Positions 2-25,496 of a stretch of 32,648 bases of DNA are shown piece after piece. This DNA is from Mycobacteriales bacterium. GTDB taxonomy: Bacteria > Actinomycetota > Actinomycetes > JAFAQI01. How positions within the stretch are numbered: the first letter of the stretch is position 1; every line of letters starts with the position of its first letter. The notes below the pieces were generated by a model. That model was not told where the DNA came from. It worked only from the letters and a program-made list of their open reading frames with translations, and did no database searches. The stretch covers positions 1 through 32,648 of the forward strand of contig DATJSI010000032.1 in NCBI GenBank assembly GCA_035504215.1, read 5' to 3'. The translations under genes and the position numbers were made by a program.

Positions 2-2182
2 ACCTACACGCTGGTGGTCACGGCCACCGACCCGGCGGGCAACGCGACCTCCACCACCGTGACCTGGGTTCGCGACACGACGCCGCCGCCGGCACCGACG
101 GTGACCCTGACGGTTCCGGCATCGTCACCCGGCAACGACACGTCGCCGCAGTTCAGCGTTACCGACAGCGAGTCAGGCGACAGCTACTCGTGCTCGGTGA
201 CCGGACCGACGTCGGTGCCGAACGCGGCGATCACCTGTGGAGCCACGACGACGGTGGTCCTCAGTGGACCGGGTCGCGATGGTGTCTACACCTTGTCCGT
301 GACCGCGACCGACGCGGCCGGGAACGTCAGCCAGGCCGGCACCGCGACCTACACGCTGGACACGACGCCGCCGCCGGCCCCCACCGTAACGCTGTCGAAC
401 CCCGCATCCTCACCCGGAAATGTCACGTCGCCGCAGTTCTCGGTGTCGGACAGCGAGTCCGGGGTGAGCTTCACGTGCAGCGTGACCGGCGCGACCACGG
501 TTCCGAGCTCGGCGATCAGCTGCGGTGCTACGACTACCGTCAACCTGTCGGGCAGCGGTCGAGACGGCACCTACATCCTGTCCGTGACTGCAACAGATGT
601 GGCCGGCAACACCAGCGTCGCCGCAGGCACAGCCACCTACATCCTGGACACCACCCCGCCGCCGGTTCCCGTCGTTCTCCTCGCGACACCCACCTCGTCA
701 CCAGGAAACGTCGTAACTCCGCAGTTCCTCGTCACGGACACCGAGCCGGGCGTGAAGCTGAGCTGTTCGATGACCGGCGCGACGACCGTGCCGCAGTCGG
801 CCATCGCCTGTGGCGCGACGACTGCGGTCGACCTGTCGGGCACTGGTCGAGACGGCACCTACACGTTGTCGGTCACCGCTACGGACGAGGCCGGCAACAC
901 GAGCCAGGCGGGCACCGCGACGTACGTCCTCGACACGACGCCTCCCGAGCCGCCGATGGTGGGGCTGGCGAGCGCGACCCGGTCGAGCAGCAAGACGCCG
1001 TTGTGGACCTGGCAGTTCGGCTTCAACGACCTCGCGACCAACCTCGACACCGCGACCTGCACCGTGACCGGACCACGGCTGTGGTCGAGCACGACGACGG
1101 ACTGCGGGCATCACTTCTCGACCCTGCTGGACGGCGGTGACGGTCCCTATGTCCTGACCGTCACGTTGACCGACGAGGCGGGAAACTCGGCGAGTGCGGT
1201 GTCACCGACGTACACCCTTGACAGCACCGCGCCGGCCGGGCCGACCGTCTTCCTGCTGCACCCGTCGAGCGGCGCCGGGCTGAGCCGGCACCCGGTGTGG
1301 TCGGTCTCCGGCCCGTCCGGCGTCACGTTCATGTGCACCTTGCGTGAGGGCGGCGACCACGGCACGGTCGTCTCGCCCGAGGCGGTCTGCCCGAACCCGA
1401 CGACGTACAGCCTCACCGGGATGTCGGACGGGCTGTTCACCCTCGAGGTCGTCGCGGTCGACGCGGCTCAGAACGTCAGCTTCCCGGCCTGGTCGTCCTA
1501 CGCGCTGGTCCCGAGCGCGCCACGGGTAAGCGCTCCGAGCGGGGAGAGCGTCACCGCAGTCTGGAGCGTCGCCGGCAACCCGAGCGACTCGTTCCTCTGC
1601 ACCTTGCTGCACGACGGCCGCGTGGTCTCGGCACAGCGCGGCTGCGGTGCGCATCCGACGTACGACATGACCCACCTCGCACCGGGTGACTACACGCTGT
1701 CCGTCGTCCAGGTTGGCGCCGAACACGTCCAGAGCGCACCGGGAACGGCGAACTGGTTCTGGGCCGGCGTTCCGCCGCACGGTCCGGGTGGCACACCGGG
1801 CGGCAACCAGAACAACGGCCATCACCCGACGGGCACCAAGACCCCCGGCGGTGGCAACCCGCTGACCAAGCTCCCTGGGGTCGTGCGCAAGCAGCTGCAG
1901 AAGCTGCGCAAGGACGTGACCTCGGTCCCGTTCGTCCACCCCTTGGTCCACCCGAACCGGATCACCGATGACATCGTCGGCGCGGTCCACGGCGCCCTCC
2001 GCTCGATCAGCTCCGCCGGCGGGGGCACCGGTTTCCCGCTCCTGCTCATCGCGGTCGTCCTGGTCTTCCTGGTGGTCCAGAACCGGATCGACCGCCGGGA
2101 TCCAAAACTTGCCCTGGCGTCGGTTGCTGCCGATGACACGGTGGAGTTCCAACCACCGCCGAGCCGAAGGGACCGGCCATGA
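2..2182 (+). CDS. Ig-repeat cell-surface protein, C-terminal membrane anchor (5' partial)
   Basis: The reading frame is open to the left edge, so the N-terminus and any signal peptide lie outside the window. About 480 residues consist of bacterial Ig-like modules of about 95 residues. Each typical module opens with Asp-Thr-Thr-Pro-Pro and carries a Cys pair (SCSV...ITCG) that could form a disulfide, then ends in a GxYTLxVTATDxAGN strand. The first modules are near-identical and the later ones diverge. A Gly/Pro/Asn/His-rich linker (about 1765-1855) and a basic stretch lead to one hydrophobic helix (about 2030-2085, FPLLLIAVVLVFLVV), followed by a short tail of about 30 residues. This suggests an exported, membrane-anchored surface or adhesin-like protein with the tail in the cytoplasm. 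The stop overlaps the start of the diguanylate cyclase gene (ATGA), indicating translational coupling. The ligand is unknown. Confidence 0.85.
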   Translation, partial: TYTLVVTATDPAGNATSTTVTWVRDTTPPPAPTVTLTVPASSPGNDTSPQFSVTDSESGDSYSCSVTGPTSVPNAAITCGATTTVVLSGPGRDGVYTLSVTATDAAGNVSQAGTATYTLDTTPPPAPTVTLSNPASSPGNVTSPQFSVSDSESGVSFTCSVTGATTVPSSAISCGATTTVNLSGSGRDGTYILSVTATDVAGNTSVAAGTATYILDTTPPPVPVVLLATPTSSPGNVVTPQFLVTDTEPGVKLSCSMTGATTVPQSAIACGATTAVDLSGTGRDGTYTLSVTATDEAGNTSQAGTATYVLDTTPPEPPMVGLASATRSSSKTPLWTWQFGFNDLATNLDTATCTVTGPRLWSSTTTDCGHHFSTLLDGGDGPYVLTVTLTDEAGNSASAVSPTYTLDSTAPAGPTVFLLHPSSGAGLSRHPVWSVSGPSGVTFMCTLREGGDHGTVVSPEAVCPNPTTYSLTGMSDGLFTLEVVAVDAAQNVSFPAWSSYALVPSAPRVSAPSGESVTAVWSVAGNPSDSFLCTLLHDGRVVSAQRGCGAHPTYDMTHLAPGDYTLSVVQVGAEHVQSAPGTANWFWAGVPPHGPGGTPGGNQNNGHHPTGTKTPGGGNPLTKLPGVVRKQLQKLRKDVTSVPFVHPLVHPNRITDDIVGAVHGALRSISSAGGGTGFPLLLIAVVLVFLVVQNRIDRRDPKLALASVAADDTVEFQPPPSRRDRP
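74..1219 (+). repeat. Tandem 285-288 bp coding repeats (Ig-like modules)
   Basis: Four consecutive units start with the Asp-Thr-Thr-Pro-Pro-type codons at 74, 359, 647 and 932, giving periods of 285, 288 and 285 bp. The next, diverged unit starts at 1220. The period is a multiple of three and keeps the frame. The first three units are most alike, which suggests recent duplication or homogenisation. The fourth keeps the frame pattern but has a different interior. Confidence 0.85.
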
Positions 2183-3759
2183 TGGCCGCCGCGCAGCGCT
2201 CCAGCGACCTCGTGCCGCTCCGGGAGCGTCTGCTCTACCTGCGCGTGCTGCGCGCCGTCCTCGCGGCGATGACCGTGCTGGATGCCGCGCTCATCCCGCA
2301 GCCGCTCCAGCGGTCCTTCATGTTCATTGCGAGCGTCGCACTCGGCTATCTCCTGCTTTCCTGGCTGATCGAGGGCCTGTGGCGGCTGCTCGACAGCCCG
2401 GGCCTGTGGCTGTTCGGAGTGCTGCTCATCATCGACGGCATCTACCTGGCCTCGGCGACCTACTTCACCGGTGGGACCGACGGCCCGGTGCGCTATCTGG
2501 TGCTCGTCTACCTCGCTGCCGTCACCCTCCTCGCGTCGTACCGCACCGGCCTGAAGGTCGCGCTTTGGCAGTCGCTGATGCTGCTGTCGGTCTTCTATGC
2601 CCAGAAGGACGGCATTCTCGCGAGCATCGGCAACACGGCGGCGACGAACGCCGCGTGGTACCGCATGGTGGCCTTCATCTTCGCCCTGTGGACGCTGACG
2701 TTGACGACCGCGACGCTGGCCGCAGTCAACGAACGCGAGCTGCGCCGCCGTCGCTTCGAGCTCGAGCAGCTGGCCCAGATGGGTCGCGACCTCGAAGAGG
2801 CGAACGACCCCTTGTCCATCGGCGACGTGCTGATCGATGCCCTCGCCGACACCTTCGGGTTCCGCCGGATGGCGTTGTTCGAGGTCACCGATCACGGCCC
2901 GCGGATGCTGACCGCGCACGGCCTGGTCGACGCGGTCGTCGCGGACTTCAGCCTCGGTGACAACTCGGTCCTGCGCCTGGTGAACGACCGCCGGCAGACG
3001 ATGCTCGTCTCGAACGTCGACGAGACCGTTGACCCCTGGCTCGCGGCAGTGATGCCGGACGCGCGGAACCTCGCGATCGTTCCGCTGGTCGCCGACGGGG
3101 TGGTCGCCGTACTCGTCGCGGAGACCGGCGACCGGTCGGGCGCGCGGATCGAGCGGCGCATCATCGCAACGACCGAGCGGTACGCGGGTCACGCCGCGCT
3201 CGCGATCCGCAACGCGAACCTGCTCGCTCGGGTGCAGCAGATGGCGGTGACCGACGGGCTCACCGAGCTTGCGAACCGCCGGGCATTCGACCGCTCGCTG
3301 GATCGCGAGCTCAACCGCGCGGCACGTACCGACGGCCGGCTCTCGGTCGTCCTGCTCGACATCGACCACTTCAAGCTGCTCAACGACAACCACGGCCATG
3401 TCGTCGGTGACTCGGTGCTGCGCCAGATCGCGCGCTCGCTCGAGCTGTGCGGACGCGAGTACGACACCATCGCCCGTTACGGCGGCGAGGAGTTCGCGGC
3501 CGTGTTGCCGGGCTGCTCGTCCGGGCTCGCGCTGCAGGTCGCCGAGCGGCTGCGGCTCGCGGTCCAGGACGCGCCGACGGACGTCAAGGTGACGGCCAGC
3601 GCAGGCGTTGCCACCTACCCGTACGACGGGATCGACGCGTCCGGCCTGCTGAGCGCGGCCGACCGGGCGCTCTACGCCTCGAAGCGGTCCGGGCGCAACC
3701 GGGTTCACTCCGCCGAGCAGGCTCGGGCCGCCGAGGTCCGGGTGCCCGCCGCCGGCTGA
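2179..3759 (+). CDS. Membrane diguanylate cyclase (GAF-GGDEF)
   Basis: Synthesises cyclic di-GMP from two GTP. Residues 20-185 hold about six hydrophobic segments forming an N-terminal membrane domain. A charged, probably helical linker (185-210) follows, then a GAF-like sensor domain (about 210-345) and a GGDEF domain (about 353-512). The active-site motif is GGEEF (435-439), preceded by the conserved LLDIDHFK segment. An intact product-inhibition site RxxD (Arg426, Asp429) has the standard spacing. No EAL domain is present, so it should make but not degrade c-di-GMP. Tandem ATGs occur at 2179 and 2182, with an AAGGGA ribosome site 6 nt before the first. The start overlaps the stop of the upstream surface-protein gene, so both are likely made from one message. 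Its last 55 bases overlap the 3' end of the convergent ATPase gene. Confidence 0.93.
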   Translation: MMAAAQRSSDLVPLRERLLYLRVLRAVLAAMTVLDAALIPQPLQRSFMFIASVALGYLLLSWLIEGLWRLLDSPGLWLFGVLLIIDGIYLASATYFTGGTDGPVRYLVLVYLAAVTLLASYRTGLKVALWQSLMLLSVFYAQKDGILASIGNTAATNAAWYRMVAFIFALWTLTLTTATLAAVNERELRRRRFELEQLAQMGRDLEEANDPLSIGDVLIDALADTFGFRRMALFEVTDHGPRMLTAHGLVDAVVADFSLGDNSVLRLVNDRRQTMLVSNVDETVDPWLAAVMPDARNLAIVPLVADGVVAVLVAETGDRSGARIERRIIATTERYAGHAALAIRNANLLARVQQMAVTDGLTELANRRAFDRSLDRELNRAARTDGRLSVVLLDIDHFKLLNDNHGHVVGDSVLRQIARSLELCGREYDTIARYGGEEFAAVLPGCSSGLALQVAERLRLAVQDAPTDVKVTASAGVATYPYDGIDASGLLSAADRALYASKRSGRNRVHSAEQARAAEVRVPAAG

Positions 3760-6700
3760 TCGGGCCGCGGGTCGAGGGCGGCCAGCTGGAGGCCGACTGC
3801 CCGGCCCCGCTGGAGCAGCCACCCTCGCCCGGGCGGGTCGTCCCCGCCTGATGCCGGTGGCAGCCGGGCGCCGAACAGGTCGGCGTCGTGCGGGCCCATC
3901 GGGCAGAGCAGCAGGCCGCACCGGCGTCGCCTGGCCTGGGCGACCGGCCCGCGGAAGGCCACTGCCATCGCCTCGGTGATCCCGGCAAGGACGATCACCT
4001 GCTCAGGGTCGGCGGCTGAGGAGATCCATCGCTCGATGTGGGCTCGCAACGCTTCGTTCTCGAGTCGGTCGACATCGTCGACCAGGAGGTGTGGACGCCG
4101 GCCGGAGCCGGTCGCGGCATCGATGCGTGCAATCGGGTCCGGGTCGTCCATCGGGAGCGGGATCACCTCGGGCCGGTCGAGCACCGGCGAGCCGGCGGGT
4201 GCACACACGATCACCGGACGGTCCGGCAGCTGCGCCGCGATCAGCGCGAGTGCGCTGCTGCGCCCGGCGCCGGGCGGCCCGGCGACCAGGAAGCCCGCGC
4301 CGAGCTCGGCGGGCCGCAGGCAGACCGCTGCGAGGTCACCGGCGCGCACGCCGAGGCCGACCGCCCCGACCGGCGATTGCACGACGGCGAGGGGAAGCCG
4401 GTCGGGCAGCGGGTCGAACCGTCGAGCTCCGGATCGCGGCCGAGGCCAGTCGGCGGCCCGGGCGAGGTCGGCGTCGTCGGGTCGCGCGACCTGGATCAGC
4501 GCCAGGTCGCTTGCTCGGTAGCCGCGTCCGGGCGGCAGCTCGCGGGGCATGTCGCGCGAGTGCAGTCCGACCAGCGCAAGGTCGCTCGGGTCGGCCGGGC
4601 GCAACACGATCCGTTCGGCGCCCGCCGCTGCAAGCCGCCCGGTGAGCCCGGCGCGCTCCGTGGTGGTCACCAGGTGCAGGCCGGCGGCCGGCCCGTCCGC
4701 CGCCAGCCTGAGCAGCCGATCGGCGATCCGGCCGGGGTCCCGGCGGTCCGCCGCTGCGCAGACGCTCTCCCACGAGTCGATGAGGAGCATGAGCACCGGC
4801 TGGTCCGGGCGCCCGGTGCGGCGCCGCTCCGCGACCGCTGCGCTCAGGTGATCGAGCAGGAGCTCCAGCCGGTCGTGCTCGCGCCCGCTGAGGACGGCGC
4901 CGCAGTGCGGCAGAAGGGCGAGATCCGCGAGGTCGCCGGTGGCATCGACCGCCCACAGGTGCAGCTGCTCGGGGGAGCGCCGACCAGTAGCGGCAAGAGC
5001 GATCGCCCTGGCCGCCGTGGTCCGCCCGCTGCGCGCGGTGCCGGCGATCACGAGGTTCGACCCGCGGCCCAGGTCGAAGGTGAGGGCTCGCTGCTGGCCC
5101 TCGGCGGGTAGGTCGACCAGTCCCCATCGCACCTGCTCCGTGTCGCCCTCGTCGGCATCACCAGCAGCAGCGGAGCCGAGGCTCGCGAGCGGGAGCACCG
5201 GCGGCAGAGGCGGGCGCCAAGGCGGCGTCGGCGTACGCAGGTCGAGCTCGGTTGCCAGCTCAGCCGCCGCCGCGACCAGGACGTCGAGGTCGGTGCGGCC
5301 GCCTCCTCCTGGCATCGGCACATCCGGTGGGTCTCCGAGCGCGCTTGCCGGCGACAGTGCAACCCGTACGCCGACCGGCTCGCTGCGCACTCCCACCCGA
5401 GCGGTGTGCAGCTCTACCGGGGCAGCCGCGCCGACCTTCGCGAACGCGCGACCCGGCGTCGTGGCGCTGATCGCGGCGGCGGCCGGCGAGTCGATGACGT
5501 CGCGCGACTCGTTCTCGCCCGCCACCGCGAGACACACCCGGATCCGGGTGTTGGCGCGGATGTCGGCCGAGAGCACTCCCTCGGGTCGTTGAGTGGCCAG
5601 GACGAGGTGGACGCCGAGCGACCGGCCCCGCCGCGCGATCCCGATCAGGCCATCGACGAAATCGGGCTGCTCGCCGGCGAGCGTCGCGAACTCGTCGATG
5701 ACGATCACCAAACGGGTCAGCGGCTCGGCTGCCGAGCCCGTGTCGGCGTACGACGCATAGTCGGTCACGCCGGCGGCAGCCAAGCGTGTTTCGCGCCGGC
5801 GCAGCTCCGCGGTCAGGGACAGCAGAGCCCGCCGGGTCGAGTCGGGTTGGAGGTCGGTGATGACGCCGACGGTGTGGGGCAGTTCCGCACACCGACCGAA
5901 CGTGGCGCCGCCCTTGTGGTCGAGGAGAAGCAGGGAGAGCCGGTCCGGGCCGTTGCGCGCCACCAGGCCGGCGACCAGGGTCAGCAGCAGCTCGCTCTTG
6001 CCGGAGCCGGTGGTGCCGGCGATGAGCGCGTGCGGTCCGTCCGCGCACAGGTCGAGGGTGAACGGCCCCGTCGCGGTTCGCCCGAGCGCGACCTGCGTGC
6101 TTGCCGGTCGGGCCCACGTGCGGCGCAGGGCGTCGATTGCCGCCCGATGGTCGGAGAGGTTCACCTGGTCCAAATCCGCCCACCGCAGCGAGCTGGGTAG
6201 CGAGGTCGACACCGGTGCCGAACCGTCGGACAACGGGGCGAGCAGGCGGGCGATCCGCTCCGCGACATCGGGGCTCACCAGATCGGCGCGGATGTCCGCG
6301 ACCGTCGTACCGTCCGGTCGTCGCAACGCGGCTCGGCACCGGTCCTGGCTCACCGTCACCACCGTCGCGGTCCGGGCCGGAAGCCAGCCCGGGTCGGCGG
6401 CCGACCAGACCAGGCTGGTCCGGTCGCCGCCGAGCTGCTCCAGCACGATTCGGGCCGCCGGGGTCAGGCGGGCCACGCACTCGTCGACGACGACCAGCGT
6501 GTGCGGCCGATCCGGTTCGAGGTCGGCAGCGCCGGCGAGCTCTCGCACCCGGGCCGCGATCTGGACGTCGTCGAACCCGACCAGTGCCCGGCTCGCCATG
6601 ACCGACCTCGTGTGGGGCAGCCACCCGGCCCAGGCCCAGCTCGGCGCGCCGCCGGGCGCGAGGATCACGATCCGTAGGGCGCCCGGCGCGTGCAAGGTGG

Positions 6701-7895
6701 CGGCTTGCACGACCAAGGAGCGGACCAGACCCCCCGCGGCGCTCGCGCCACATACTCCCAGCGGACCGTCGGCGGCGAGGCGAACGGTCACCGGTACGTC
6801 GGTCACTGCCGGCGGCGCCGCACCGGCGACTGTGACCGCGCTGGGCAGCTCGCCGCAGCCGAGCCGCAGGCTCAACGTGTCCTCGTCGTCCATCCCACGG
6901 CTCCACAGGAGTGGGCCGCGGCTGGCCGCTACTCGCGCCAGTGTCGCGAGGTCGGGCGCGGCCTCATGCCGCCGTCGACGTTCGGCCTCGATCAGCGCGC
7001 CGAGCGTGGCTTTCGCAGCCGCGGTGGTCTCGGCATGCCGGTCGTTGGCTGCCCGGATGGCCCGCTTGCGGTCGCGATGGTCGCTCGCGGCCTGGGCGAG
7101 CATCATCACCGGCGACAGCGCGGTGAAGGCCAGGAACTGCCACTGGCGCAATGCCGCGGCGAGCGCGACGCCGCCGGCCAACGGCACCATGGTCGCGAGC
7201 CAAGGCACCCGGATGCGCGCGGGTGCGCTCGGCGGGCCGGGGAACTCGATCCGGCCGGGTGCCGGCGGGCGTCGGGGCCGCGGCGCCCGATGCAGGACGG
7301 CGGGTCCCTCGCCGGCTCGTGGCCACGACGCGACCCGGAGCCGGGACGTGCCGACATCGACCCAGGCCCCGACGGATAGGTCGACCGACCGGCCGGCGGG
7401 AATCGCTACGCCGTCCACCGCCGTGCCGTTCGCCGAGCCGAGCTCCATCAGCGTCGCGGTCACAGCCGGAGACGACCCCGAGACCGTGATCGCCGCGTGG
7501 GCTCGGCTGATCGCGGGGTCGGCGATGCCGGCTCGCGCCGGATCGCTGCGGCCGGTCATGCTCCGGCCGATCACCGTTCGTCCGTCAGACAAGGCGATGA
7601 TGCGACCGGCGTCCGGGCCGCTCGCCACCTCGAGAGCAAGCGCCGCACCGTCGACCACGTTGTCTGGCTGGCCGCCGACGACCGCGACGGTGCCCTCCCA
7701 CAACCCGCAGTCGATCGCCGCCGCGTCGGGGTCCGGTCGCCGCTCGCCGACCGCGATGGGGGCGCCGGGGTCGGCGCCCACCGCGCGACGCAGCGCCATG
7801 AGGACGCCGGCGGCGCAGGTGCCGTCCGGCGCGTCGAGCTCGACGTCGGCACACGCGCCGGTTCGAGCCTCGAGGACGGTTAGCCGCGCGCGCAT
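3705..7895 (-). CDS. EccC/EssC-like FtsK/SpoIIIE ATPase with FHA domain
   Basis: A 1396-residue protein with the layout of type VII secretion motor ATPases. It has a small N-terminal domain, an FHA phosphothreonine-binding domain (about 86-190, with GRS 110-112, SRAH 130-133 and NG 156-157), two membrane helices (about 229-270), and three FtsK/SpoIIIE ATPase modules. Module 1 is intact: Walker A GTTGSGKS (627-634) and Walker B LVIVIDEF (729-736). Modules 2 and 3 have Arg in place of the Walker A Lys: GTARSGRT (952-959) and GPPGAGRS (1206-1213), although acidic Walker B-like strands remain (VLMLLIDS, HLLVDDV). Only module 1 is therefore expected to hydrolyse ATP normally. An in-frame GTG at 7970 would add 25 residues. 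The ATG at 7895 is preferred because a TAnnnT box sits 7 nt upstream. No WXG100 substrate, EccB/D/E or mycosin gene is in the window, so its secretion partners are unknown. Confidence 0.85.
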   Translation of the reverse strand: MRARLTVLEARTGACADVELDAPDGTCAAGVLMALRRAVGADPGAPIAVGERRPDPDAAAIDCGLWEGTVAVVGGQPDNVVDGAALALEVASGPDAGRIIALSDGRTVIGRSMTGRSDPARAGIADPAISRAHAAITVSGSSPAVTATLMELGSANGTAVDGVAIPAGRSVDLSVGAWVDVGTSRLRVASWPRAGEGPAVLHRAPRPRRPPAPGRIEFPGPPSAPARIRVPWLATMVPLAGGVALAAALRQWQFLAFTALSPVMMLAQAASDHRDRKRAIRAANDRHAETTAAAKATLGALIEAERRRRHEAAPDLATLARVAASRGPLLWSRGMDDEDTLSLRLGCGELPSAVTVAGAAPPAVTDVPVTVRLAADGPLGVCGASAAGGLVRSLVVQAATLHAPGALRIVILAPGGAPSWAWAGWLPHTRSVMASRALVGFDDVQIAARVRELAGAADLEPDRPHTLVVVDECVARLTPAARIVLEQLGGDRTSLVWSAADPGWLPARTATVVTVSQDRCRAALRRPDGTTVADIRADLVSPDVAERIARLLAPLSDGSAPVSTSLPSSLRWADLDQVNLSDHRAAIDALRRTWARPASTQVALGRTATGPFTLDLCADGPHALIAGTTGSGKSELLLTLVAGLVARNGPDRLSLLLLDHKGGATFGRCAELPHTVGVITDLQPDSTRRALLSLTAELRRRETRLAAAGVTDYASYADTGSAAEPLTRLVIVIDEFATLAGEQPDFVDGLIGIARRGRSLGVHLVLATQRPEGVLSADIRANTRIRVCLAVAGENESRDVIDSPAAAAISATTPGRAFAKVGAAAPVELHTARVGVRSEPVGVRVALSPASALGDPPDVPMPGGGGRTDLDVLVAAAAELATELDLRTPTPPWRPPLPPVLPLASLGSAAAGDADEGDTEQVRWGLVDLPAEGQQRALTFDLGRGSNLVIAGTARSGRTTAARAIALAATGRRSPEQLHLWAVDATGDLADLALLPHCGAVLSGREHDRLELLLDHLSAAVAERRRTGRPDQPVLMLLIDSWESVCAAADRRDPGRIADRLLRLAADGPAAGLHLVTTTERAGLTGRLAAAGAERIVLRPADPSDLALVGLHSRDMPRELPPGRGYRASDLALIQVARPDDADLARAADWPRPRSGARRFDPLPDRLPLAVVQSPVGAVGLGVRAGDLAAVCLRPAELGAGFLVAGPPGAGRSSALALIAAQLPDRPVIVCAPAGSPVLDRPEVIPLPMDDPDPIARIDAATGSGRRPHLLVDDVDRLENEALRAHIERWISSAADPEQVIVLAGITEAMAVAFRGPVAQARRRRCGLLLCPMGPHDADLFGARLPPASGGDDPPGRGWLLQRGRAVGLQLAALDPRPDQPAAGTRTSAARACSAE

Positions 7896-7902
7896 CCCGG
7901 AA

Positions 7903-7908
7903 ACGGTA
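7903..7908 (-). promoter_or_regulatory. Candidate leaderless -10 box of the EccC-like gene
   Basis: On the minus strand TACCGT is followed by 7 nt and then the ATG at 7895. This fits the actinobacterial TAnnnT -10 element with transcription starting at or next to the start codon. No Shine-Dalgarno sequence precedes the ATG. Inference from pattern only. Confidence 0.4.
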
Positions 7909-8067
7909 GGGACGATCGCGGCCGTTCCTCGCCCGCCGTCCACAGGGGGGCGCCATCGAGCGGGACGCACGGTCCTGCCGTCCCGTTTCGTCCGATTGCC
8001 CTCTTCAGGACCAAGGACCTGCGACCGAATATGGGGTTAGACGACCGACTATGAGAAGGATCGGCTG

Positions 8068-12682: not shown

Positions 12683-14770
12683 CTAGAACTTGGAGATCTC
12701 CTGGACGAACGATGGTCCAGCCGTTCCCAGACCGGTCAGGCTGTCGAAGCCCGGGGCCGTGGAGAGGGTGACGGGCCGCGTCGCGCAGTTGCCGGTCGCG
12801 TCGCAGTACGTCTCGGAACCCTCATAGTCCAGAACTCGGAGGCTGACCACGTAGCCATCCTCGGAGTTCATTGTGTTGGCGTAGTCAACCCGGATGACAG
12901 ACGCAGCGTCGGCGTTGGCCGGAGGCACGATATCGTTGAATGCGCTCTCGGTCTCGCCGTACGCCTTGTACAGCGTCGGGTTCATGAAGCCCTCGGACAC
13001 GCCGGATGCCTGGTCGGTGTCAGCGATGACGCCGGCAAGCAGCGGCGAGGCGAGGCTGGTGCCGCCTTCCTTGAACTGGCCGTAGTGTACGCCGTCCCCA
13101 AAGGTTTGGGTCAGACCGATGAGCATGCCAGTCTGGGCGTCGCCGTCCATCGAGATATCCGGCTCCACCCGCAGCGGCTGCGGACCGAAGATGTTCTCGT
13201 TCCGCAAGGCAAGTGCCGCCGGCACCACGCCAGCCTGGTAATACGGCTGGGTGTAGTAGTAGCTGGTGCCACCGCCACCGCCGGCCTGGAAGGCCAGTGC
13301 GCCGGCCGGCGAGGTCGCCGACCCGCAGTTGGTGGTGGAGCTCACGCACAGCGTCTGCTTCGCGGTCGACCAGCCGTATTCGGCCATCCGGGAGTCGTTC
13401 GCCCCGACTTCCAGCGACGTCCCACCCACGGCGGTCACGTAGGGGCTGGTCGGCGGGTAGTCCGGAACATTGAGGCCGAAGTCGGCGAAGTTGTCGCCGT
13501 CGTCGCCTGACGAGAACAGCACGCTGACGCCGGTCGCTTCGGCCATGACGAACGCGTTGTCGAACGCGGTCTTGGCGTCTGCATCCTCGAGCAGGTCGCC
13601 CAGGGTGTCGCCCCAGGAGTCGCTGACCACCGACGCGCCACTGGTGATGGCGGTCGTCAGCGCGGCCAGCAGGCTGCTGTCGAAGCAGTCGTCGGCTCCG
13701 ACGTACTCGATGTTGGCACCGGGTGCCATCGCGTGCGAGGACTCGACATCGAGCGACTGCTCGTCGTACCAACCGCTCGCCGCGCACTCGTCCTCGTTGC
13801 CGACGCTTGCGGGCTCGATGTTGGTGAACTGGCTGGACTTGATCTGGTGAGCCGCGTCGTTCAGCGAGTAGTAGTGCTGAGCGTCCGCGAGCAGCGTCGG
13901 CGAGTCGTACGCGTCAACGATCGCGATCGTGACGCCGGAGCCGTCGATGCCGTTCTTGAGATCCTTCTGGATCCCGTAGCCACCCCGCAGCTGGTACGGG
14001 CTGTAGCCACAGATGTCGTAAGCGTGGCCGGTGTACGGCGCATACAGCGAGGAGGAGTCAGCCGTGTCCGTCTGCTGCCCCCAGTATGCCGAGCACGGCT
14101 TGGGGTTGCGGAAGCCGGTCGGCGGAGCCGGTTCGGAGTCGCTCGACTTCGCGTTGCCGTGTGCGGTCGCCTTGGATACGCGAGAGAGGTCCGGCGTGTT
14201 GCGGTACTGGTTCACGCCGACGACACCCGCGACCGTGCCGGACAGCGAGGTCGGGATCGACAGGGTCTTGGTCGCGAGGCGCACCTTGTGCCCCTGCACT
14301 TTGTACAGCCCCAGGCCGGTGGCAAATGCCTTCTCGACCTGCTTCGCGGTACCCGAAGCGGGGATGAACAATCGCGTGTTCGCGACCTTGCCCACTGTGA
14401 AGCCCTGCTTGCGTAGCCAGCTCTCCGCACGGCTGACCGCAGCGGTGGTCGGGCCGAAGCGGCTCAGCCACTGCGCGTCAGTGATGTAGTGGTGGTACTG
14501 CTTGTTGCCAGGGCTCGAGACGGCGCGCGCCAGTGCCCGCTCGGCGGCTGCGTGGCGAACCTGCAGTGTCAGGTCGAACTTGACCCGGCTGCTCGCCGCG
14601 ATCTTGCCCGCTGGCTTGCTGCGAGCGACCGCCGAACTCATCGAGCCGCGCAAGTCGGCGCGATGCACCGCGCCTGCCGCGGACGCAGTGGGGATGCCCA
14701 CTGCTGCCACGCTGGCAGACATGGCGAGCCCCGCTGCTCCCAGCGTGACCCATGATCGGGCAGATCTCAT
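12683..14770 (-). CDS. Secreted S53 family peptidase (sedolisin/kumamolisin type)
   Basis: A 695-residue serine-carboxyl protease precursor. It has a signal peptide (1-32, ending in ASA-A) and a pro-kumamolisin activation domain (about 55-190, with QYHHYITDAQWLSRFGPT). The catalytic domain runs from about 225 to the end. Family residues visible are Glu337 and Asp341 in DEQSLDVESSHAMAPGA, a probable oxyanion Asp423 in FSSGDDGDN, and nucleophile Ser572 in GGTSLASPLLAG. The C-terminal GFDSLTGLG resembles the calcium-site region. Such enzymes are exported as zymogens and usually cleave proteins at acidic pH. Several Cys pairs (for example 475/482 and 656/662) suggest disulfides. The ATG has a GGGAGAGG ribosome site 5 nt upstream. 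It is divergent from the decarboxylase gene and convergent with the two-component genes. Confidence 0.92.
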   Translation of the reverse strand: MRSARSWVTLGAAGLAMSASVAAVGIPTASAAGAVHRADLRGSMSSAVARSKPAGKIAASSRVKFDLTLQVRHAAAERALARAVSSPGNKQYHHYITDAQWLSRFGPTTAAVSRAESWLRKQGFTVGKVANTRLFIPASGTAKQVEKAFATGLGLYKVQGHKVRLATKTLSIPTSLSGTVAGVVGVNQYRNTPDLSRVSKATAHGNAKSSDSEPAPPTGFRNPKPCSAYWGQQTDTADSSSLYAPYTGHAYDICGYSPYQLRGGYGIQKDLKNGIDGSGVTIAIVDAYDSPTLLADAQHYYSLNDAAHQIKSSQFTNIEPASVGNEDECAASGWYDEQSLDVESSHAMAPGANIEYVGADDCFDSSLLAALTTAITSGASVVSDSWGDTLGDLLEDADAKTAFDNAFVMAEATGVSVLFSSGDDGDNFADFGLNVPDYPPTSPYVTAVGGTSLEVGANDSRMAEYGWSTAKQTLCVSSTTNCGSATSPAGALAFQAGGGGGTSYYYTQPYYQAGVVPAALALRNENIFGPQPLRVEPDISMDGDAQTGMLIGLTQTFGDGVHYGQFKEGGTSLASPLLAGVIADTDQASGVSEGFMNPTLYKAYGETESAFNDIVPPANADAASVIRVDYANTMNSEDGYVVSLRVLDYEGSETYCDATGNCATRPVTLSTAPGFDSLTGLGTAGPSFVQEISKF

Positions 14771-20226: not shown

Positions 20227-20393
20227 CGTTGCAGTACAGCAGTGACCGTCGTGTTGGCCGCCTGGTGCACCCGCTGCGACCAACCGGCGCAAGCCTCTGG
20301 GCATCCGGGGGGTCTGCGGGACGATCGCTCGATGTCAACCTCGGCCGGCTGCCCGGCGTTGAGGTGGCAAAGGATCGTTCGAAGGGGTGTCCG

Positions 20394-23024
20394 ATGTCTG
20401 CATGGTCCCGCCGGCGCAGCGCGCGCCGAGTTCTCGCCGTAGCCGCAAGCGCCGGGCTGGTGATCGGCGTGTGGGTCGCGCCACCGGCGAGCGCTGCGTC
20501 CGCGGGCGCCCGCTCCGGCTCGCTGTTCTGCTTCGGCCACAAGGCGACGATCGTCGGCACCGCGAAGGATGACGACATCCTGGGTACGCCGGGCAACGAC
20601 GTCATCGTCGGGCTCGGCGGCAACGACACCATCAACGGCGGCGGCGGCAACGACCTCATCTGCGGCGGGCCCGGCGACGACGTGATCCTGGGTGGCCGCG
20701 GCAACGACAAGATCAGCGGCGGCCCGGGCAACGACCAGCTCAACGGCCAAGGTGGCAACGACACCCTGGTCGGCGGCGCGGGCAACGACAGCCTGATCGG
20801 TGGGCGCGGCCGAGACGTGCTCAACGGTGGTGACGGTGACGACAACATCTCCGGTGGCAACGCCCGCGACGTCATCGACGGCGGAGCGGGCAACGACTAC
20901 ATCCAGGGTGGTGCCGGTCCCGACACGATCAACGGAGGCGACGGCAACGACGTCATCAACGGGGACACCGGCGCGGATCAGCTCCTCGGCGGCAACGGCA
21001 ACGACAACATCGCCGGCGGATCGGGCGACGACATCCTGCATGGCGGGGCGGGCAACGACCGCTTGAGCGGCGGCACGGGGAGCGATCAGCTCTTCGGCGA
21101 AGCGGGCAACGACGTTCTCTTCGGTGGCGGAGGGTCCGATCACCTCTCGGGTGGCGATGGGAACGACGTACTCGCGGGTGGATCCCCATTCCGCTTCCGG
21201 AATGCCGTGCCGAAGGGCACGGACGTGCTCGACGGCGGTGCGGGCACGGACAAGATCACGTTGTACCGGCCGTTCATGAAGGACCGCTCGGGCATCACCG
21301 TGAACCTCTCGACCGGGATCGAGAAGGGCGACGGCTCGGAGACGTTCACGAACATCGAGTCGGCGGTCGTCTTCAGCAACAACGACAACGTCTTGGTCGG
21401 AAACGACGCGGACAACATGTTCTTCTCGCCGTTCGGCACCAACATCGAACAGGGTGGCGGGGGCAATGACAGGTTCGACACCGAGGACGGGAAGTACGCG
21501 ATCGATGGCGGTACGGGCGAGAACACGATCAGCTTCGCGCGCGCATTCGGCCGCAACGGTGGGGTCACGGTGGACCTCCGGCTCGGCATCGCCCACTCGG
21601 TCCACTACGACATGTTCACCAACATCCAGAACGTGGTCGGCTCCCAGGGCAACGACATCATCACCGGCGACGACGCCGACAACGTCCTTCGCGGTCTCGG
21701 TGGCAACGACATCATCGATGGCCAAGGCGGCAACGACCGGATCTACGGCGGCTATGGAAACGACACGCTGACCGGTGGTGCCGGCGACGACCTGATCGAC
21801 GGCGCCGACCCGACCGAACCACGCTCGAACATCGGGTACGAGGACCAGGTCACCTACGAGGACGCCCCGGGGCCGGTCACGATCGACCTGATGACCGGCA
21901 CCGCGACCGGATGGGGCAACGACACGATCGAGAACGTCCTCGACGCCTCCGGGTCGCTGTACGACGACACGATCATCGGCAACAACGACAACAACGACCT
22001 GTCCGGCAGCCTCGGCAACGACACCATCGACGGCATGGGCGGCAACGACATCATCGTGGGCGGCCCCGCCGACGACACGCTCGACGGCGGCGATGGCATT
22101 GACGAGGTCAGCTACAAGAGCTCGGCGTCGCCGGTCAACGTGGACCTCGAGACCGGGGTGGCGACCGGGCAGGGCAACGACACGCTGGCGAACTTCGAGG
22201 ACATCCGCGGCTCGATCTTCGACGACACCCTGACCGGCAACGACGAGGACAACCGGATCCACGGCGGCCCCGGCGACGACACGATCAACGGGCTCGGCGG
22301 CGATGACCTCATCACTGACATCTCGGGGAACGACACGATCGACGGCGGAGACGGCAACGACGTCATCTACTCCGGTCCGGGCGACGACACGGTCACCGGT
22401 GGCGAGGGCGACGACACGTTCTACGACGGTCCCGGAGCCGACTCCTACGACGGCGGCGATGGATCCGACACGATCGTCGACTCCTCGTCGCCCGTTGCGA
22501 TCAACGCGAACCTCGAGACCGGCGTAATCGTCGGGCAGGACACGGACACGGTGGCCAACGTCGAGAACGTCATCGGCACCGAGTTCAACGACGTCATCAC
22601 GGGCAACGACAGCGACAACCTGCTGAACGGCGGCGCCGGTCGAGACGAGCTGTTCGGCAACGGCGGGGACGACATGCTGATCGGCGGCCCGGGCGCCGAC
22701 ATCATGGACGGCGGCGATGGGACGGACACCGTCAGCTTCGCCGACTCGCCGAGAGCCGTGAGTGTCGACCTGCGTGATGGCTTCGCCAGGTACGACGGCG
22801 GCGACCGGATCGAGAACGTCGAGAACGTGATCGGCTCGTCGTACAACGACGTGATCAACGGTGACGACAACGACAACGTGATCGACGGTGGCCCGGGCGA
22901 CGACACGCTCTACGGCAACGGCGGCAACGACACGATCAACGGCGGGCCCGGGGTGGACATCATCGATGGCGGTCCCGGCACCGACACGTGCGTCGGCGAG
23001 CATGTCGTGAACTGCGAGAGCTGA
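20394..23024 (+). CDS. Sec-exported RTX-type calcium-binding repeat protein
   Basis: An 876-residue protein. An N-terminal Sec signal peptide (1-34: SRRRSARR, a hydrophobic core, then PASA-A) is followed by an uninterrupted block of about 20 nonapeptides of the hemolysin/RTX form GGxGxDxxx (about 55-263). These fold into a calcium-filled parallel beta-roll. After that, shorter RTX blocks alternate with a longer recurring unit of the form VNVDLETGxATGxGNDTxxNFExxxGSxxDDxxxGND, about five to six times. A Cys pair (DTCVGEHVVNC) closes the protein. The ribosome site GAAGGGG (20381-20387) is 6 nt before the ATG. There is no C-terminal type I secretion signal region and no type I transporter nearby, so export should be by Sec. 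No enzymatic domain is seen. A structural or adhesive surface role is inferred. Confidence 0.88.
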   Translation: MSAWSRRRSARRVLAVAASAGLVIGVWVAPPASAASAGARSGSLFCFGHKATIVGTAKDDDILGTPGNDVIVGLGGNDTINGGGGNDLICGGPGDDVILGGRGNDKISGGPGNDQLNGQGGNDTLVGGAGNDSLIGGRGRDVLNGGDGDDNISGGNARDVIDGGAGNDYIQGGAGPDTINGGDGNDVINGDTGADQLLGGNGNDNIAGGSGDDILHGGAGNDRLSGGTGSDQLFGEAGNDVLFGGGGSDHLSGGDGNDVLAGGSPFRFRNAVPKGTDVLDGGAGTDKITLYRPFMKDRSGITVNLSTGIEKGDGSETFTNIESAVVFSNNDNVLVGNDADNMFFSPFGTNIEQGGGGNDRFDTEDGKYAIDGGTGENTISFARAFGRNGGVTVDLRLGIAHSVHYDMFTNIQNVVGSQGNDIITGDDADNVLRGLGGNDIIDGQGGNDRIYGGYGNDTLTGGAGDDLIDGADPTEPRSNIGYEDQVTYEDAPGPVTIDLMTGTATGWGNDTIENVLDASGSLYDDTIIGNNDNNDLSGSLGNDTIDGMGGNDIIVGGPADDTLDGGDGIDEVSYKSSASPVNVDLETGVATGQGNDTLANFEDIRGSIFDDTLTGNDEDNRIHGGPGDDTINGLGGDDLITDISGNDTIDGGDGNDVIYSGPGDDTVTGGEGDDTFYDGPGADSYDGGDGSDTIVDSSSPVAINANLETGVIVGQDTDTVANVENVIGTEFNDVITGNDSDNLLNGGAGRDELFGNGGDDMLIGGPGADIMDGGDGTDTVSFADSPRAVSVDLRDGFARYDGGDRIENVENVIGSSYNDVINGDDNDNVIDGGPGDDTLYGNGGNDTINGGPGVDIIDGGPGTDTCVGEHVVNCES
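20556..21182 (+). repeat. RTX nonapeptide array (about 27-bp coding period)
   Basis: Roughly 20 consecutive 9-codon units encode GGxGxDxxx. The coding sequence repeats as GGC-GGC-n-GGC-AAC-GAC-like blocks. The period is kept in frame and substitutions are mainly at x positions. Confidence 0.85.
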
Positions 23025-23240: not shown

Positions 23241-23406
23241 GCCACTGGTCGTTCGGCGCGGTGCGGAGCCTGCCGCTTCCCGCACCGGCCGCGTTATCCA
23301 CAACCGTCGAGATTCGGGATTGGCGTGAGGCCGCACTGCCTCGTAGCGTTCGCGGCCTCGGGGGGTAGGGGCCGCCCGGGACGTGCTCGGGGGGAGTGCA
23401 GGGGTC

Positions 23407-24636
23407 GTGGACGCGACGGGGGTGGTCGAGCAGGAGGTCCGTGAGCTGGTTCGCCGGCGCGGGCTCGATCCCGCCGCCGACGTCGCCGCGGTCCGGGCCC
23501 TGGTCGACGACGTGGTTGCCGACTACGACGATCGCTCGCTGACCGGCGTACTTCCGGCACCTGGCGATCCCCGGCTGCTGGCCAGGCAGGTGTTCGATGC
23601 GGTTGCCGGCTTCGGGCCATTGCAGCCCTACCTCGATGACGAGACCATCGAGGAGATCTGGATCAACGAGCCGGGTCGGGTGTTCGTTGCGCGGAGGGGA
23701 CGCAGCGAGCTGACGACCACCATGCTGCTCGCCGATGAGGTGCGCGACCTGGTCGAGCGAATGCTGAAGTCATCCGGTCGTCGGGTCGACCTGTCAACGC
23801 CGTTCGTCGACGCGTCGCTTCCCGACGGCAGCCGACTGCACGTGGTGATTCCGGACATCACGCGCCGGGACTGGGCGGTCAACATCCGCAAGTTCGTCGT
23901 CGGTGCCACGTCGCTCGACGAGCTGGTCGCGCTCGCCACGCTTACCCCGGGAGCGGCGCGGTTCCTCGATGCGTCGGTGTGCGCGGGTCTCAACATCATC
24001 GTGGCCGGCGGAACCCAGGCCGGGAAGACCACTTTGCTCAACTGCCTGGCTGCCTCGATTCCGGCACGTGAGCGGGTCATCACCTGCGAAGAGGTGTTCG
24101 AGGTCCGACTGCTGTTGCCCGATGTCGTTTCGATGCAGACCCGGCAGTCGAATCTCGAAGGCACCGGTGAGATCCCGTTGCGGCGGCTCGTCAAAGAGGC
24201 ACTGCGGATGCGGCCGGACCGCATCCTGGTCGGTGAGGTACGGCAGGAGGAGTGCCTGGACCTGCTGATCGCGTTGAACTCAGGCCTGCCGGGGATGTGC
24301 ACGATCCATGCGAACTCGGCGCGGGAGGCGATCACCAAGCTCTGCACCCTGCCGTTGCTGGCAGGAGAGAACGTGAGCCACGCCTTCGTCGTACCGACGG
24401 TCGCCGCCAGCGTCGACCTCGTCGTACACATTGCGCGCGACGGTCACGGACACCGGCAGGTGCGCGAGATCGCTGCCGTTCCTGGCCGGGTCGAAGGCGA
24501 CGTGATCGAGCTCGCAGACGTATTCGTCACGCGGCGCGACCGCTTGGTACGGGCGGAAGGCTGGCCTCCGCATGCCGAACGTTTCGCGAGCGCAGGCATC
24601 GACCTTGCAGCACTGCTCACCGTGGAGTCGATCTGA
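23407..24636 (+). CDS. cpaF: Tad pilus assembly ATPase CpaF/TadA
   Basis: A 409-residue secretion ATPase of the CpaF/TadA branch of type II/IV secretion motors, which powers Tad pilus extension (and in some systems retraction) at the inner face of the membrane. It has an N-terminal domain (about 1-170: GFGPLQPYLDDETIEEIWIN) and a C-terminal RecA-like core with Walker A GGTQAGKTT (201-209), where Gln replaces the more usual Gly. The Asp/Glu box region is ITCEEVFE (225-232), with Walker B-like RILVGEVR (272-279) and His301 in CTIHANS. Start: GTG 23407 is favoured over GTG 23383. Both have G-rich upstream sequence, so this is uncertain. The stop overlaps the tadB start (TGATG). First gene of a seven-gene Tad unit. 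Confidence 0.93.
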   Translation: MDATGVVEQEVRELVRRRGLDPAADVAAVRALVDDVVADYDDRSLTGVLPAPGDPRLLARQVFDAVAGFGPLQPYLDDETIEEIWINEPGRVFVARRGRSELTTTMLLADEVRDLVERMLKSSGRRVDLSTPFVDASLPDGSRLHVVIPDITRRDWAVNIRKFVVGATSLDELVALATLTPGAARFLDASVCAGLNIIVAGGTQAGKTTLLNCLAASIPARERVITCEEVFEVRLLLPDVVSMQTRQSNLEGTGEIPLRRLVKEALRMRPDRILVGEVRQEECLDLLIALNSGLPGMCTIHANSAREAITKLCTLPLLAGENVSHAFVVPTVAASVDLVVHIARDGHGHRQVREIAAVPGRVEGDVIELADVFVTRRDRLVRAEGWPPHAERFASAGIDLAALLTVESI

Positions 24637-25496
24637 TGGGGTCGCTCATCGGCCTGGTCCTCGGGATCGGCGTGCTCTTGATCTGGCGCAGCGGACCGCG
24701 GGCTCCCCAGCGCCGACCGCGGACCACGCCGAGCCTTAACGATCGCGTAGCCGACCTGTTGCTCCAGGCGGGCTACGCGTCGGTCCGGCCCGAGCAGCTG
24801 TACGCCGTCTGCGTCGGGCTCGCCGTGCTGACGTTCATCGTGGTTGCAGGGGTGAGTCGCGCGGCGACGATCGGGGTCGCCTTCGCCGGCTTCGCCGCGT
24901 ACTCGCCGATCGCGCTGGTCCGTCATCGTCGTCGTCAACGCGCTGGCGAGCTGCGCGAGCTGTGGCCGGGTGTCGTCGACAACCTCGCTTCCGCGGTTCG
25001 TGCGGGGCTGTCCCTTCCCGAGGCAGTCGCCCAACTGGCCGGCCGCGGGCCGGCCGTCCTGCGGCCGGCGTTCGAGGACTTCGCGGCGGACTACGCGGCG
25101 ACCGGCCGCTTCGGCGACTGCCTCGACCGGCTGAAGGCCGCGCTCGCGGACCCGGTTGCCGACCGGATCGTCGAGTCCATGCGCCTCGCCCGCGAGGTCG
25201 GCGGCAGCGATCTCGGGCGGTTGTTGCGCACGTTGTCGGGCTTCCTTCGTGAGGACGCCCGAACGCGGGCGGAGCTCGAAACCCGCCAGGGCTGGACGGT
25301 CTCGGCGGCGCGGCTCGCGCTCGCAGCGCCCTGGGTGATCCTGGGCATGCTCGCGCTGCGACCCGAAACCGTTGCTGCGTATGACACCAGCGCGGGTATC
25401 GCGGTGCTCGCCGGTGGCGCGATCGTGTCGGTGGCGGCGTACCGGGTCATGCTGCGGGTGGCGCAGCTTCCGGCCGACGAGCGGGTGCTGAGGTGA
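24636..25496 (+). CDS. tadB: Tad pilus inner-membrane platform protein TadB
   Basis: A 286-residue type II secretion F-like (T2SSF) membrane protein. One N-terminal helix (about 3-17) is followed by further helices around residues 50-95, a cytoplasmic T2SSF helical domain (about 105-215, with LWPGVVDNLASAVRAGLSLPEA and MRLAREVGGSDLGRLLRTLSGFLREDARTRAE-type segments) and two C-terminal helices (about 228-275). TadB with TadC forms the platform on which CpaF acts. The ATG at 24636 overlaps the cpaF stop, and the stop overlaps the tadC GTG (GTGA), so translation of all three is coupled. Confidence 0.92.
   Translation: MGSLIGLVLGIGVLLIWRSGPRAPQRRPRTTPSLNDRVADLLLQAGYASVRPEQLYAVCVGLAVLTFIVVAGVSRAATIGVAFAGFAAYSPIALVRHRRRQRAGELRELWPGVVDNLASAVRAGLSLPEAVAQLAGRGPAVLRPAFEDFAADYAATGRFGDCLDRLKAALADPVADRIVESMRLAREVGGSDLGRLLRTLSGFLREDARTRAELETRQGWTVSAARLALAAPWVILGMLALRPETVAAYDTSAGIAVLAGGAIVSVAAYRVMLRVAQLPADERVLR

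What the first reader, a model, noticed from the sequence alone, without database searches (positions are those of the whole stretch)
2..3759. Surface Ig-repeat protein translationally coupled to a diguanylate cyclase
An ATGA overlap ties an anchored, repeat-rich surface protein to a membrane GAF-GGDEF cyclase that keeps both GGEEF and the RxxD inhibitory site. Stoichiometric production suggests the surface protein may signal to, or be controlled with, local c-di-GMP synthesis. The anchor's short cytoplasmic tail and the cyclase's multi-helix membrane domain would lie in the same membrane.
Basis: partly seen in the sequence, partly recalled or inferred. Interest (0 to 1): 0.5.

Follow-up and report, generated by a model that had tools for sequence, protein, structure and literature searches.

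The report
Split surface sensor with cyclase output
In these bacteria a cell-surface protein ends in a short, strongly conserved tail inside the cell and its gene overlaps that of a membrane-embedded signalling enzyme; the two look like halves of one split receptor whose outer part and signalling part have both been exchanged during evolution.

Summary
ORF1 (2-2182, cut by the contig edge) has Ig-like repeats, one membrane helix and a cytoplasmic tail; it overlaps by ATGA an intact membrane-GAF-GGDEF enzyme (2179-3759; RxxD and GGEEF present).

The pair is not local. Nine of 12 genomes searched in its family keep it, and searches across its phylum found 34 tail-enzyme pairs, 28 with a 4-base overlap. 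Of the surface protein only the membrane helix and tail (QNRIDRRDPKLA...) are conserved; ectodomains range from Ig and NHL repeats to short low-complexity stretches. The tail is constrained as protein (98% residue identity, 54% at third codon positions). In these pairs the enzyme carries a six-helix, PilS-like domain plus GAF; its output is GGDEF (27) or histidine kinase (7). Three cyclases that lost the surface gene keep all 40 GGDEF invariants but have lost membrane or GAF residues kept in nearly all pairs.

Best reading: a split receptor in which a 6TM PilS-like sensor detects its dedicated single-pass surface protein through the tail, as PilS senses pilin PilA. Contact, direction and stimulus are inferred. 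Ten searches of one open-access library showed no description; intramembrane sensing of a surface protein is itself known.

The parts
2..2182 (+). 3' part of a surface-protein gene (726 codons, 5' end cut by the contig edge): Ig-like repeats, linker, one TM helix, cytoplasmic tail
   Evidence: N-terminal part with signal peptide on contig C73 by synteny
55..911 (+). three Ig-like repeat units of 284 nt in register
   Evidence: Pfam Big_13 with 4 stretches passing
2033..2080 (+). membrane-spanning helix FPLLLIAVVLVFLVVQ (by reading)
   Evidence: sequence; alignment A1
2081..2179 (+). cytoplasmic tail NRIDRRDPKLALASVAADDTVEFQPPPSRRDRP, the conserved signature of the partner protein
   Evidence: profile A1 found in 16 of 393 class genomes (one of them judged false) and 19 of 396 phylum genomes
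2179..2182 (+). ATGA stop/start overlap of the two genes
   Evidence: 4-base overlap possible in 28 of 34 pairs
2179..3759 (+). membrane diguanylate cyclase, 526 aa
2209..2793 (+). six-helix PilS-like membrane domain (residues 11-205); K126 (2554-2556) and E185-R186 (2731-2736), invariant in pairs, at the predicted cytoplasmic face
   Evidence: six long helices in a low-confidence model
2794..3213 (+). GAF-like domain (residues 206-345) with RIERR motif; R326 at 3154-3156
3244..3702 (+). GGDEF domain; I-site REYD 3454-3465, active site GGEEF 3481-3495

Best explanation
The two genes make a split membrane receptor. The upstream protein is exported (signal peptide), displays an ectodomain outside, crosses the membrane once and leaves a short tail (QNRIDRRDPKLA...) at the cytoplasmic membrane face. 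The downstream enzyme has a six-helix PilS-like sensor domain and a GAF domain that bind this helix and tail, much as PilS binds the pilin PilA. The presence, amount or load state of the surface protein would set the activity of the output domain: here c-di-GMP synthesis with a product-inhibition site, elsewhere a histidine kinase. Shown: gene order and overlap, co-occurrence, protein-level conservation of the tail, exchange of ectodomain and of output, change of specific sensor residues where the canonical tail is missing. Inferred: physical contact, direction of the signal (surface to cytoplasm), and the stimulus (surface attachment or simple inventory of the surface protein).
For: Tail profile and 6TM domain co-occur: 18 shared genomes of 19 with the tail and 20 with the domain, among 396 drawn across the phylum; 15 shared of 16 and 18 among 393 in the class. 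34 of 43 tail places have the enzyme as the next gene. Tail core IDRRDPKLALAS in 11 Frankiales-type proteins: 98% residue identity against 54% at third codon positions; ectodomain near the membrane 42%/53%. Same sensor domain with GGDEF (27 pairs) or histidine-kinase output (7 pairs; one confirmed by Pfam, six by motif and reading). PF25323 6TM_PilS: 25 of 30 sensor domains match at E<=1, best 4.8e-9. Tail-less G004 and G008 lost K126, E185 and R186 (3 of 12 membrane residues invariant in 24 paired cyclases) but 0 of 40 GGDEF invariants. With all 34 pairs aligned, K126 is kept in 33 of 33 readable, E185 and R186 in 34 of 34, R326 in 33 of 34 (exception L133); R326 is changed in all five enzymes whose genome gave no credible canonical tail match (G001, G004, G008, G656, G618), and K126/E185/R186 in three of those five. 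PilS-PilA precedent: passage in PMC6058289.
Against: No direct evidence of contact or of altered c-di-GMP. Cyclases persist without the surface gene in 3 of 12 family-f1 genomes, so the enzyme has some use alone. Losses by count do not separate tail-less from paired enzymes: in leave-one-out, paired L133 and L135 lose 8/34 and 7/33 membrane positions and paired L101 and L050 lose 7/20 and 5/18 GAF positions, against 1-7/31 and 4-5/16 in G001, G004 and G008. G001 (recent loss) keeps all 12 membrane invariants; G656 keeps K126, E185 and R186 but loses 4 of the other membrane invariants and 3 of 40 in GGDEF; G586, whose tail gene lies elsewhere, keeps R326, E185 and R186 but has lost K126 and 1 of 40 in GGDEF. 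G656 and G618 are distant, so drift alone may explain them. Positions were chosen after inspection and the losses come from about four lineages. The window's own domain scores only 16.2 bits on PF25323, under the cut-off of 27. Profile A2 was built from tail-paired enzymes, which favours finding pairs. Three tail proteins have neither this enzyme nor a c-di-GMP gene next to them (G586:C117, G705, G435 second copy).
Confidence: 0.6

Rival explanations
1. Co-expression only: the two proteins are needed at the same time (for attachment), and the overlap gives coordinated translation without physical contact. The tail is conserved for another cytoplasmic partner or for membrane insertion.
For: Gene overlaps are common in bacteria (general knowledge). 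In G001 only the last ~20 codons of the tail, next to the cyclase start, survive, as if kept for translation initiation. Three tail proteins have no 6TM enzyme or c-di-GMP gene beside them.
Against: The tail is kept with kinases as well as cyclases while ectodomains change beyond recognition; co-expression does not call for a constant tail. R326, and in three genomes K126, E185 and R186, change where the canonical tail is missing. Third codon positions in the tail core are as free as in the ectodomain, so it is not a conserved DNA/RNA element.
Confidence: 0.22
2. Inside-out control: c-di-GMP made by the enzyme controls retention, clustering or release of the surface protein (LapD-like direction).
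For: Large Ig-repeat ectodomain like an adhesin; product-inhibition residues conserved in all 24 aligned paired cyclases (R426, D429). One tail protein is followed by REC-EAL.
Against: Seven pairs have a histidine kinase in place of the cyclase. Many partners have short low-complexity ectodomains. The common element is the sensor, not the output.
Confidence: 0.1
3. The 6TM domain senses something else (quinone, lipid, small molecule); the single-pass protein is only an obligatory assembly subunit.
For: A GG-xxx-P-(L/V)-R-like stretch between helices 3 and 4, predicted outside, is found in most members and is kept in tail-less G001, G004 and G008.
Against: Large ectodomains (open frame of 2892 codons in G023; NHL plus Ig in G393) would be superfluous for assembly alone.
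Confidence: 0.08

Closest known systems
PilS-PilA (P. aeruginosa type IV pilin autoregulation)
   Same: Six-helix membrane sensor with a Pfam-detectable PilS-like domain; the sensed partner is a single-TM surface protein; direct interaction through the TM segments (PMC6058289 passage; Kilmury and Burrows 2016 known only from its citation there and from recall, not held).
   Different: Here the partner is a dedicated, C-terminally anchored protein with exchangeable ectodomain and conserved cytoplasmic tail, encoded in overlap with the sensor; the sensor carries GAF and mostly a GGDEF output. None of the 10 partners scanned matched a pilin family.
SadC-PilO-PilY1 (P. aeruginosa)
   Same: A cyclase activated through membrane proteins of the surface machinery (passage in PMC11139211).
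   Different: Partners there are pilus alignment and surface-associated proteins, not a gene-overlapping dedicated subunit; no conserved tail known to me (recall).
Co-component systems such as VtrA/VtrC and ToxR/ToxS (PMC9214523, start of abstract in a search listing only)
   Same: Two genes in one operon for membrane proteins that form one receptor, described as fast-evolving cassettes.
   Different: Those pair through periplasmic domains and signal through a DNA-binding domain (recall); here the constant part is cytoplasmic tail plus 6TM domain with an enzyme as output.
LapD-LapG / LapA adhesin control and YfiBNR
   Same: Surface or periplasmic protein linked to c-di-GMP at the membrane.
   Different: Different sensor architecture (HAMP and periplasmic domain; recalled). 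NCBIfam models for DgcN/YfiN and LapD matched only at the GGDEF region and far under cut-off (116.9 of 325 and 53.7 of 1020 bits).

Membership tests
Diguanylate cyclase (GGDEF, PF00990 / TIGR00254) | GGDEF domain above cut-off with GG(D/E)EF active site | tested here: met
   151.8 bits against 23.8; 160.4 against 37.4; GGEEF at 3481-3495
Diguanylate cyclase (GGDEF, PF00990 / TIGR00254) | cyclase activity in vitro or in vivo | not testable with these tools
   needs enzyme assay
PF25323 6TM_PilS sensor domain | Pfam gathering score | tested here: inconclusive
   window member 16.2 bits (cut-off 27, not met); homologous domain of L126 33.4 bits (met); 25 of 30 homologues match at E<=1
PF25323 6TM_PilS sensor domain | six transmembrane helices | tested here: inconclusive
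   helices 14-38, 44-71, 76-96, 104-119, 125-143, 156-207 in a model of mean pLDDT 61
PilS-PilA type autoregulatory system | sensed partner is a type IV pilin and the sensor's output is a PilS-type kinase | tested here: not met
   no pilin family match in the 10 partners scanned; output of the window's enzyme is GGDEF
PilS-PilA type autoregulatory system | direct intramembrane contact between sensor and surface protein | not testable with these tools
   works-like claim only; inferred from co-occurrence and residue changes
LapD-type c-di-GMP receptor | degenerate GGDEF-EAL receptor with HAMP and periplasmic domain (recalled) | tested here: not met
   intact GGEEF, no EAL match; LapD model 53.7 bits against 1020, GGDEF region only
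Bacterial Ig-like surface protein (Big_13) | Pfam gathering score | tested here: met
   113.8 bits against 27, 4 stretches

The most novel reading that the evidence does not exclude
A phylum-wide family of plug-in receptors: a constant transmembrane-plus-tail plug (QNRIDRRDPKLA) carries interchangeable ectodomains into a constant 6TM-GAF socket with interchangeable outputs (cyclase, histidine kinase; possibly also EAL enzymes in trans), so that the cell turns the presence or load of one particular surface protein into a second messenger or phosphorylation.
Probability: 0.45. Interest if true: 0.78.

Novelty: new variant of a known kind. Interest (0 to 1): 0.62.

Why it matters
How 6TM sensor domains of kinases and cyclases are switched is mostly unknown (my recall of the field). 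This gives a naturally co-inherited partner for one such domain, with a short tail and a handful of residues to mutate, and it would tie surface display directly to c-di-GMP in actinobacteria, where inputs to c-di-GMP are little studied.

Tried and rejected
A DNA/RNA element as reason for the conserved tail core: rejected, since its third codon positions vary as in the ectodomain; the 12 codons after the core are less clear (72% residues, 70% third positions). A window-specific or chance overlap: rejected. A general sorting signal: unlikely, since 34 of 43 tail places have the 6TM enzyme as the next gene. Two tail matches were taken as false by reading: G176:C65 (E 6e-5, followed by a ferredoxin-like NADH-dehydrogenase subunit) and G004:C78 (E 0.008). 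A simple count of lost conserved residues does not separate tail-less from distant paired enzymes, so only the identity of the residues is used. The AlphaFold2 model had mean pLDDT 61 and was used only for helix positions; no fold search was run. Solved structures: the only listed match to the 6TM profile was an unrelated enzyme at E 0.96. Literature: ten searches; none of the four tail-motif strings occurs in the held full texts, and no title or abstract start shown in the listings described such a pair; listings were capped, and papers outside that library were not searched. Passages only were seen of PMC6058289 and PMC11139211; nothing of Kilmury and Burrows 2016.
Full report
What is there. 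The window is a complete contig (G000:C32) of a draft genome in 150 contigs; its nearest named relatives are Frankiaceae/Frankiales MAGs. ORF1 (2-2182) runs in from the contig edge: Ig-like repeats (Big_13), a linker, a TM helix and a 33-residue tail. ORF2 (2179-3759) begins within ORF1's stop (ATGA) and is a 526-aa protein with six predicted long helices, a GAF-like region and an intact GGDEF domain with REYD and GGEEF.

Where the rest of ORF1 is. The minus strand of contig C73 carries, in order, an aldehyde dehydrogenase gene and then an open frame with a signal peptide (by reading) and Ig-like repeats that runs to the contig end. The order dehydrogenase, surface gene, cyclase is found in G002 and G023. 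The two contig ends share no exact overlap, so the link rests on synteny.

The pair in close relatives. Cyclase orthologues were found in all 12 family-f1 genomes (G000-G011). In nine the surface gene sits directly upstream. In G001, G004 and G008 it is gone. In G001 and G008 the dehydrogenase gene precedes the cyclase; in G004 it is the gene that lies before the dehydrogenase in C73. In G001 a scar of the last ~20 tail codons with a GTGA overlap remains.

The constant part. Among 11 Frankiales-type proteins the tail block DRRDPKLALASVAADDTVEF averages 0.88 pairwise identity, the TM blocks 0.62-0.71, the linker 0.21-0.35 and the Ig part 0.39-0.70. For IDRRDPKLALAS residue identity is 98% while third codon positions agree in 54%, as in the ectodomain (53%): selection is on the protein.

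Tail survey. Profile A1 (58 columns) matched 13 of 60 relatives (E<=0.01), 16 of 393 class genomes and 19 of 396 phylum genomes, overlapping samples; together 43 places. 34 have an enzyme with the 6TM domain as the next gene; in 28 of the 34 a start codon gives an overlap of exactly 4 bases (the start nearest to the overlap was taken). G050's enzyme is frame-broken and G010's is split by a contig end. One further place (G470:C97, minus strand) is followed, with overlap, by a REC-EAL protein; three (G006, G009, G011) are small tail proteins convergent with a GGDEF-EAL or EAL gene, two of the three also downstream of a GGDEF gene. Three have no such neighbour (G586:C117 beside convergent 5S and 23S rRNA; G705; G435 second copy). 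Two were judged false. In the two large searches only up to 16 candidates per genome were scored, so misses are possible.

Reverse survey. Profile A2 of the membrane domain matched 20 of 396 phylum genomes and 18 of 393 class genomes at E<=1e-15 (up to 7 candidates scored per genome), which I count as 40 enzymes. 34 have the canonical tail gene upstream. G656 and G618 have diverged single-pass proteins there (fibronectin-repeat protein; 129-codon frame; by reading, fn3), G586 a short frame without TM or tail, and G001, G004 and G008 nothing. Co-occurrence by Fisher test is 6e-28 (phylum) and 3e-23 (class), but genomes are related and A2 was built from paired enzymes, so these figures overstate independence.

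Exchange on both sides. Ectodomains: Ig repeats (window by Pfam; G023 by NCBIfam; other f1 proteins and G032 by reading), NHL plus Ig (G393), fibronectin III (G656), and no family match in six partners scanned (L137, L102, L101, L052, L135, L130). Outputs: GGDEF in 27 of 34 pairs (one with GGEEL, G011:C193; the G050 and G010 enzymes incomplete as above) and a histidine kinase in 7 (G664, G637, G530, G427, G449, G500, G470; only G664 scanned with Pfam, HisKA_3). On a tree of 30 membrane domains the six kinase rows included form one side of a branch, with modest support (70/90; 71% of bootstrap trees), so one exchange suffices.

The sensor domain. PF25323 (6TM_PilS) matches 25 of 30 members at E<=1, the best at 4.8e-9, the window's own at 0.0087 and below cut-off; L126 in full length passes the cut-off. 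PilS has six TM segments that allow it to interact directly with the pilin PilA (PMC6058289, passage). This is the nearest precedent I know for a 6TM sensor reading a single-TM surface protein.

What changes when the tail is lost. In 24 aligned paired cyclases 12 membrane-domain, 2 GAF and 40 GGDEF residues are invariant. G004 and G008 lost K126, E185 and R186 but none of the 40; G001 lost none of the 12 and none of the 40; G586 lost K126 and one of the 40; G656 lost four others of the 12 and three of the 40. With all 34 pairs aligned (kinases and partial enzymes included): K126 kept in 33 of 33 readable, E185 and R186 in 34 of 34, R326 of the GAF RIERR motif in 33 of 34 (exception L133). Among enzymes without an adjacent canonical tail, R326 is changed in G001, G004, G008, G656 and G618 and kept in G586; K126 is changed in G004, G008, G618 and G586; E185 and R186 in G004, G008 and G618. 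By the six-helix topology with cytoplasmic ends, K126 and E185/R186 lie at the cytoplasmic face, where the tail emerges. Against this: counts of lost positions overlap with distant paired enzymes (membrane: L133 8/34, L135 7/33; GAF: L101 7/20, L050 5/18), G656 and G618 are distant, the losses come from about four lineages (G004 and G008 are one genus), and the positions were chosen after inspection.

Mechanism. The simplest account is a split receptor. The part shared by cyclase- and kinase-bearing partners is the sensor, so the tail most likely informs the sensor (outside-in), rather than c-di-GMP acting on the surface protein. What the ectodomain reports (attachment, load, or just its own abundance) is open. 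In five other genomes (G005, G006, G009, G011, G023) a Tad-type ATPase gene begins 0.2-3.9 kb downstream of the cyclase, and 19.6 kb downstream in the window, which fits a role in attachment; none was seen in the 23 locus records of more distant tail places (L101-L103, L126-L145) searched, whose flanks are short.

Novelty. No Pfam or NCBIfam match was listed in the tail region of the partners scanned, and the tail strings occur in no held full text. Intramembrane sensing of a surface protein by a 6TM domain is known, so I class this as a new variant of a known kind.

Noticed in passing
window 23383-26434: Tad/Flp pilus-type genes (T2SSE ATPase, two T2SSF proteins) on the cyclase's strand; a TadA homologue begins 0.2-3.9 kb after the orthologous cyclase in G005, G006, G009, G011 and G023.
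   Followed up: partly
window 20229-23024: 931-aa protein with 16 RTX calcium-binding repeat stretches just upstream of the Tad genes.
   Followed up: no
window 3705-7970 (-): FHA plus FtsK/SpoIIIE protein (EccC-like by my reading) convergent with the cyclase; a relative lies downstream of the cyclase in G002 too.
   Followed up: partly
L093, L094, L095 (G009, G011, G006): Second, ~217-aa tail protein (tail VQHRLDRRDVKLS.. or near) convergent with a GGDEF-EAL or EAL gene and, in L094 and L095, downstream of a GGDEF gene; no 6TM enzyme next to it.
   Followed up: partly
L145:2-1113 (-) (G470): Tail protein overlapping a REC-EAL gene, on the same contig as a canonical tail-kinase pair on the other strand.
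   Followed up: partly
L039:2520-2882 (+): Small divergent gene (helix-turn-helix-like by reading) between the dehydrogenase and surface genes, with relatives in G001, G002 and G023.
   Followed up: no
L139 (G586:C117): Tail gene ending about 40 bases from a convergent 5S-23S rRNA operon, with its genome's cyclase on another contig behind a short secreted-looking frame; looks like a rearrangement or assembly break.
   Followed up: partly
L139:6695-7093 (-) (G586:C117): Group I intron match (57 bits, cut-off 50) inside the stretch matched to 23S rRNA.
   Followed up: no
window 12683-14770 (-): Pro-kumamolisin activation domain in a 695-aa protein with no peptidase domain match.
   Followed up: no
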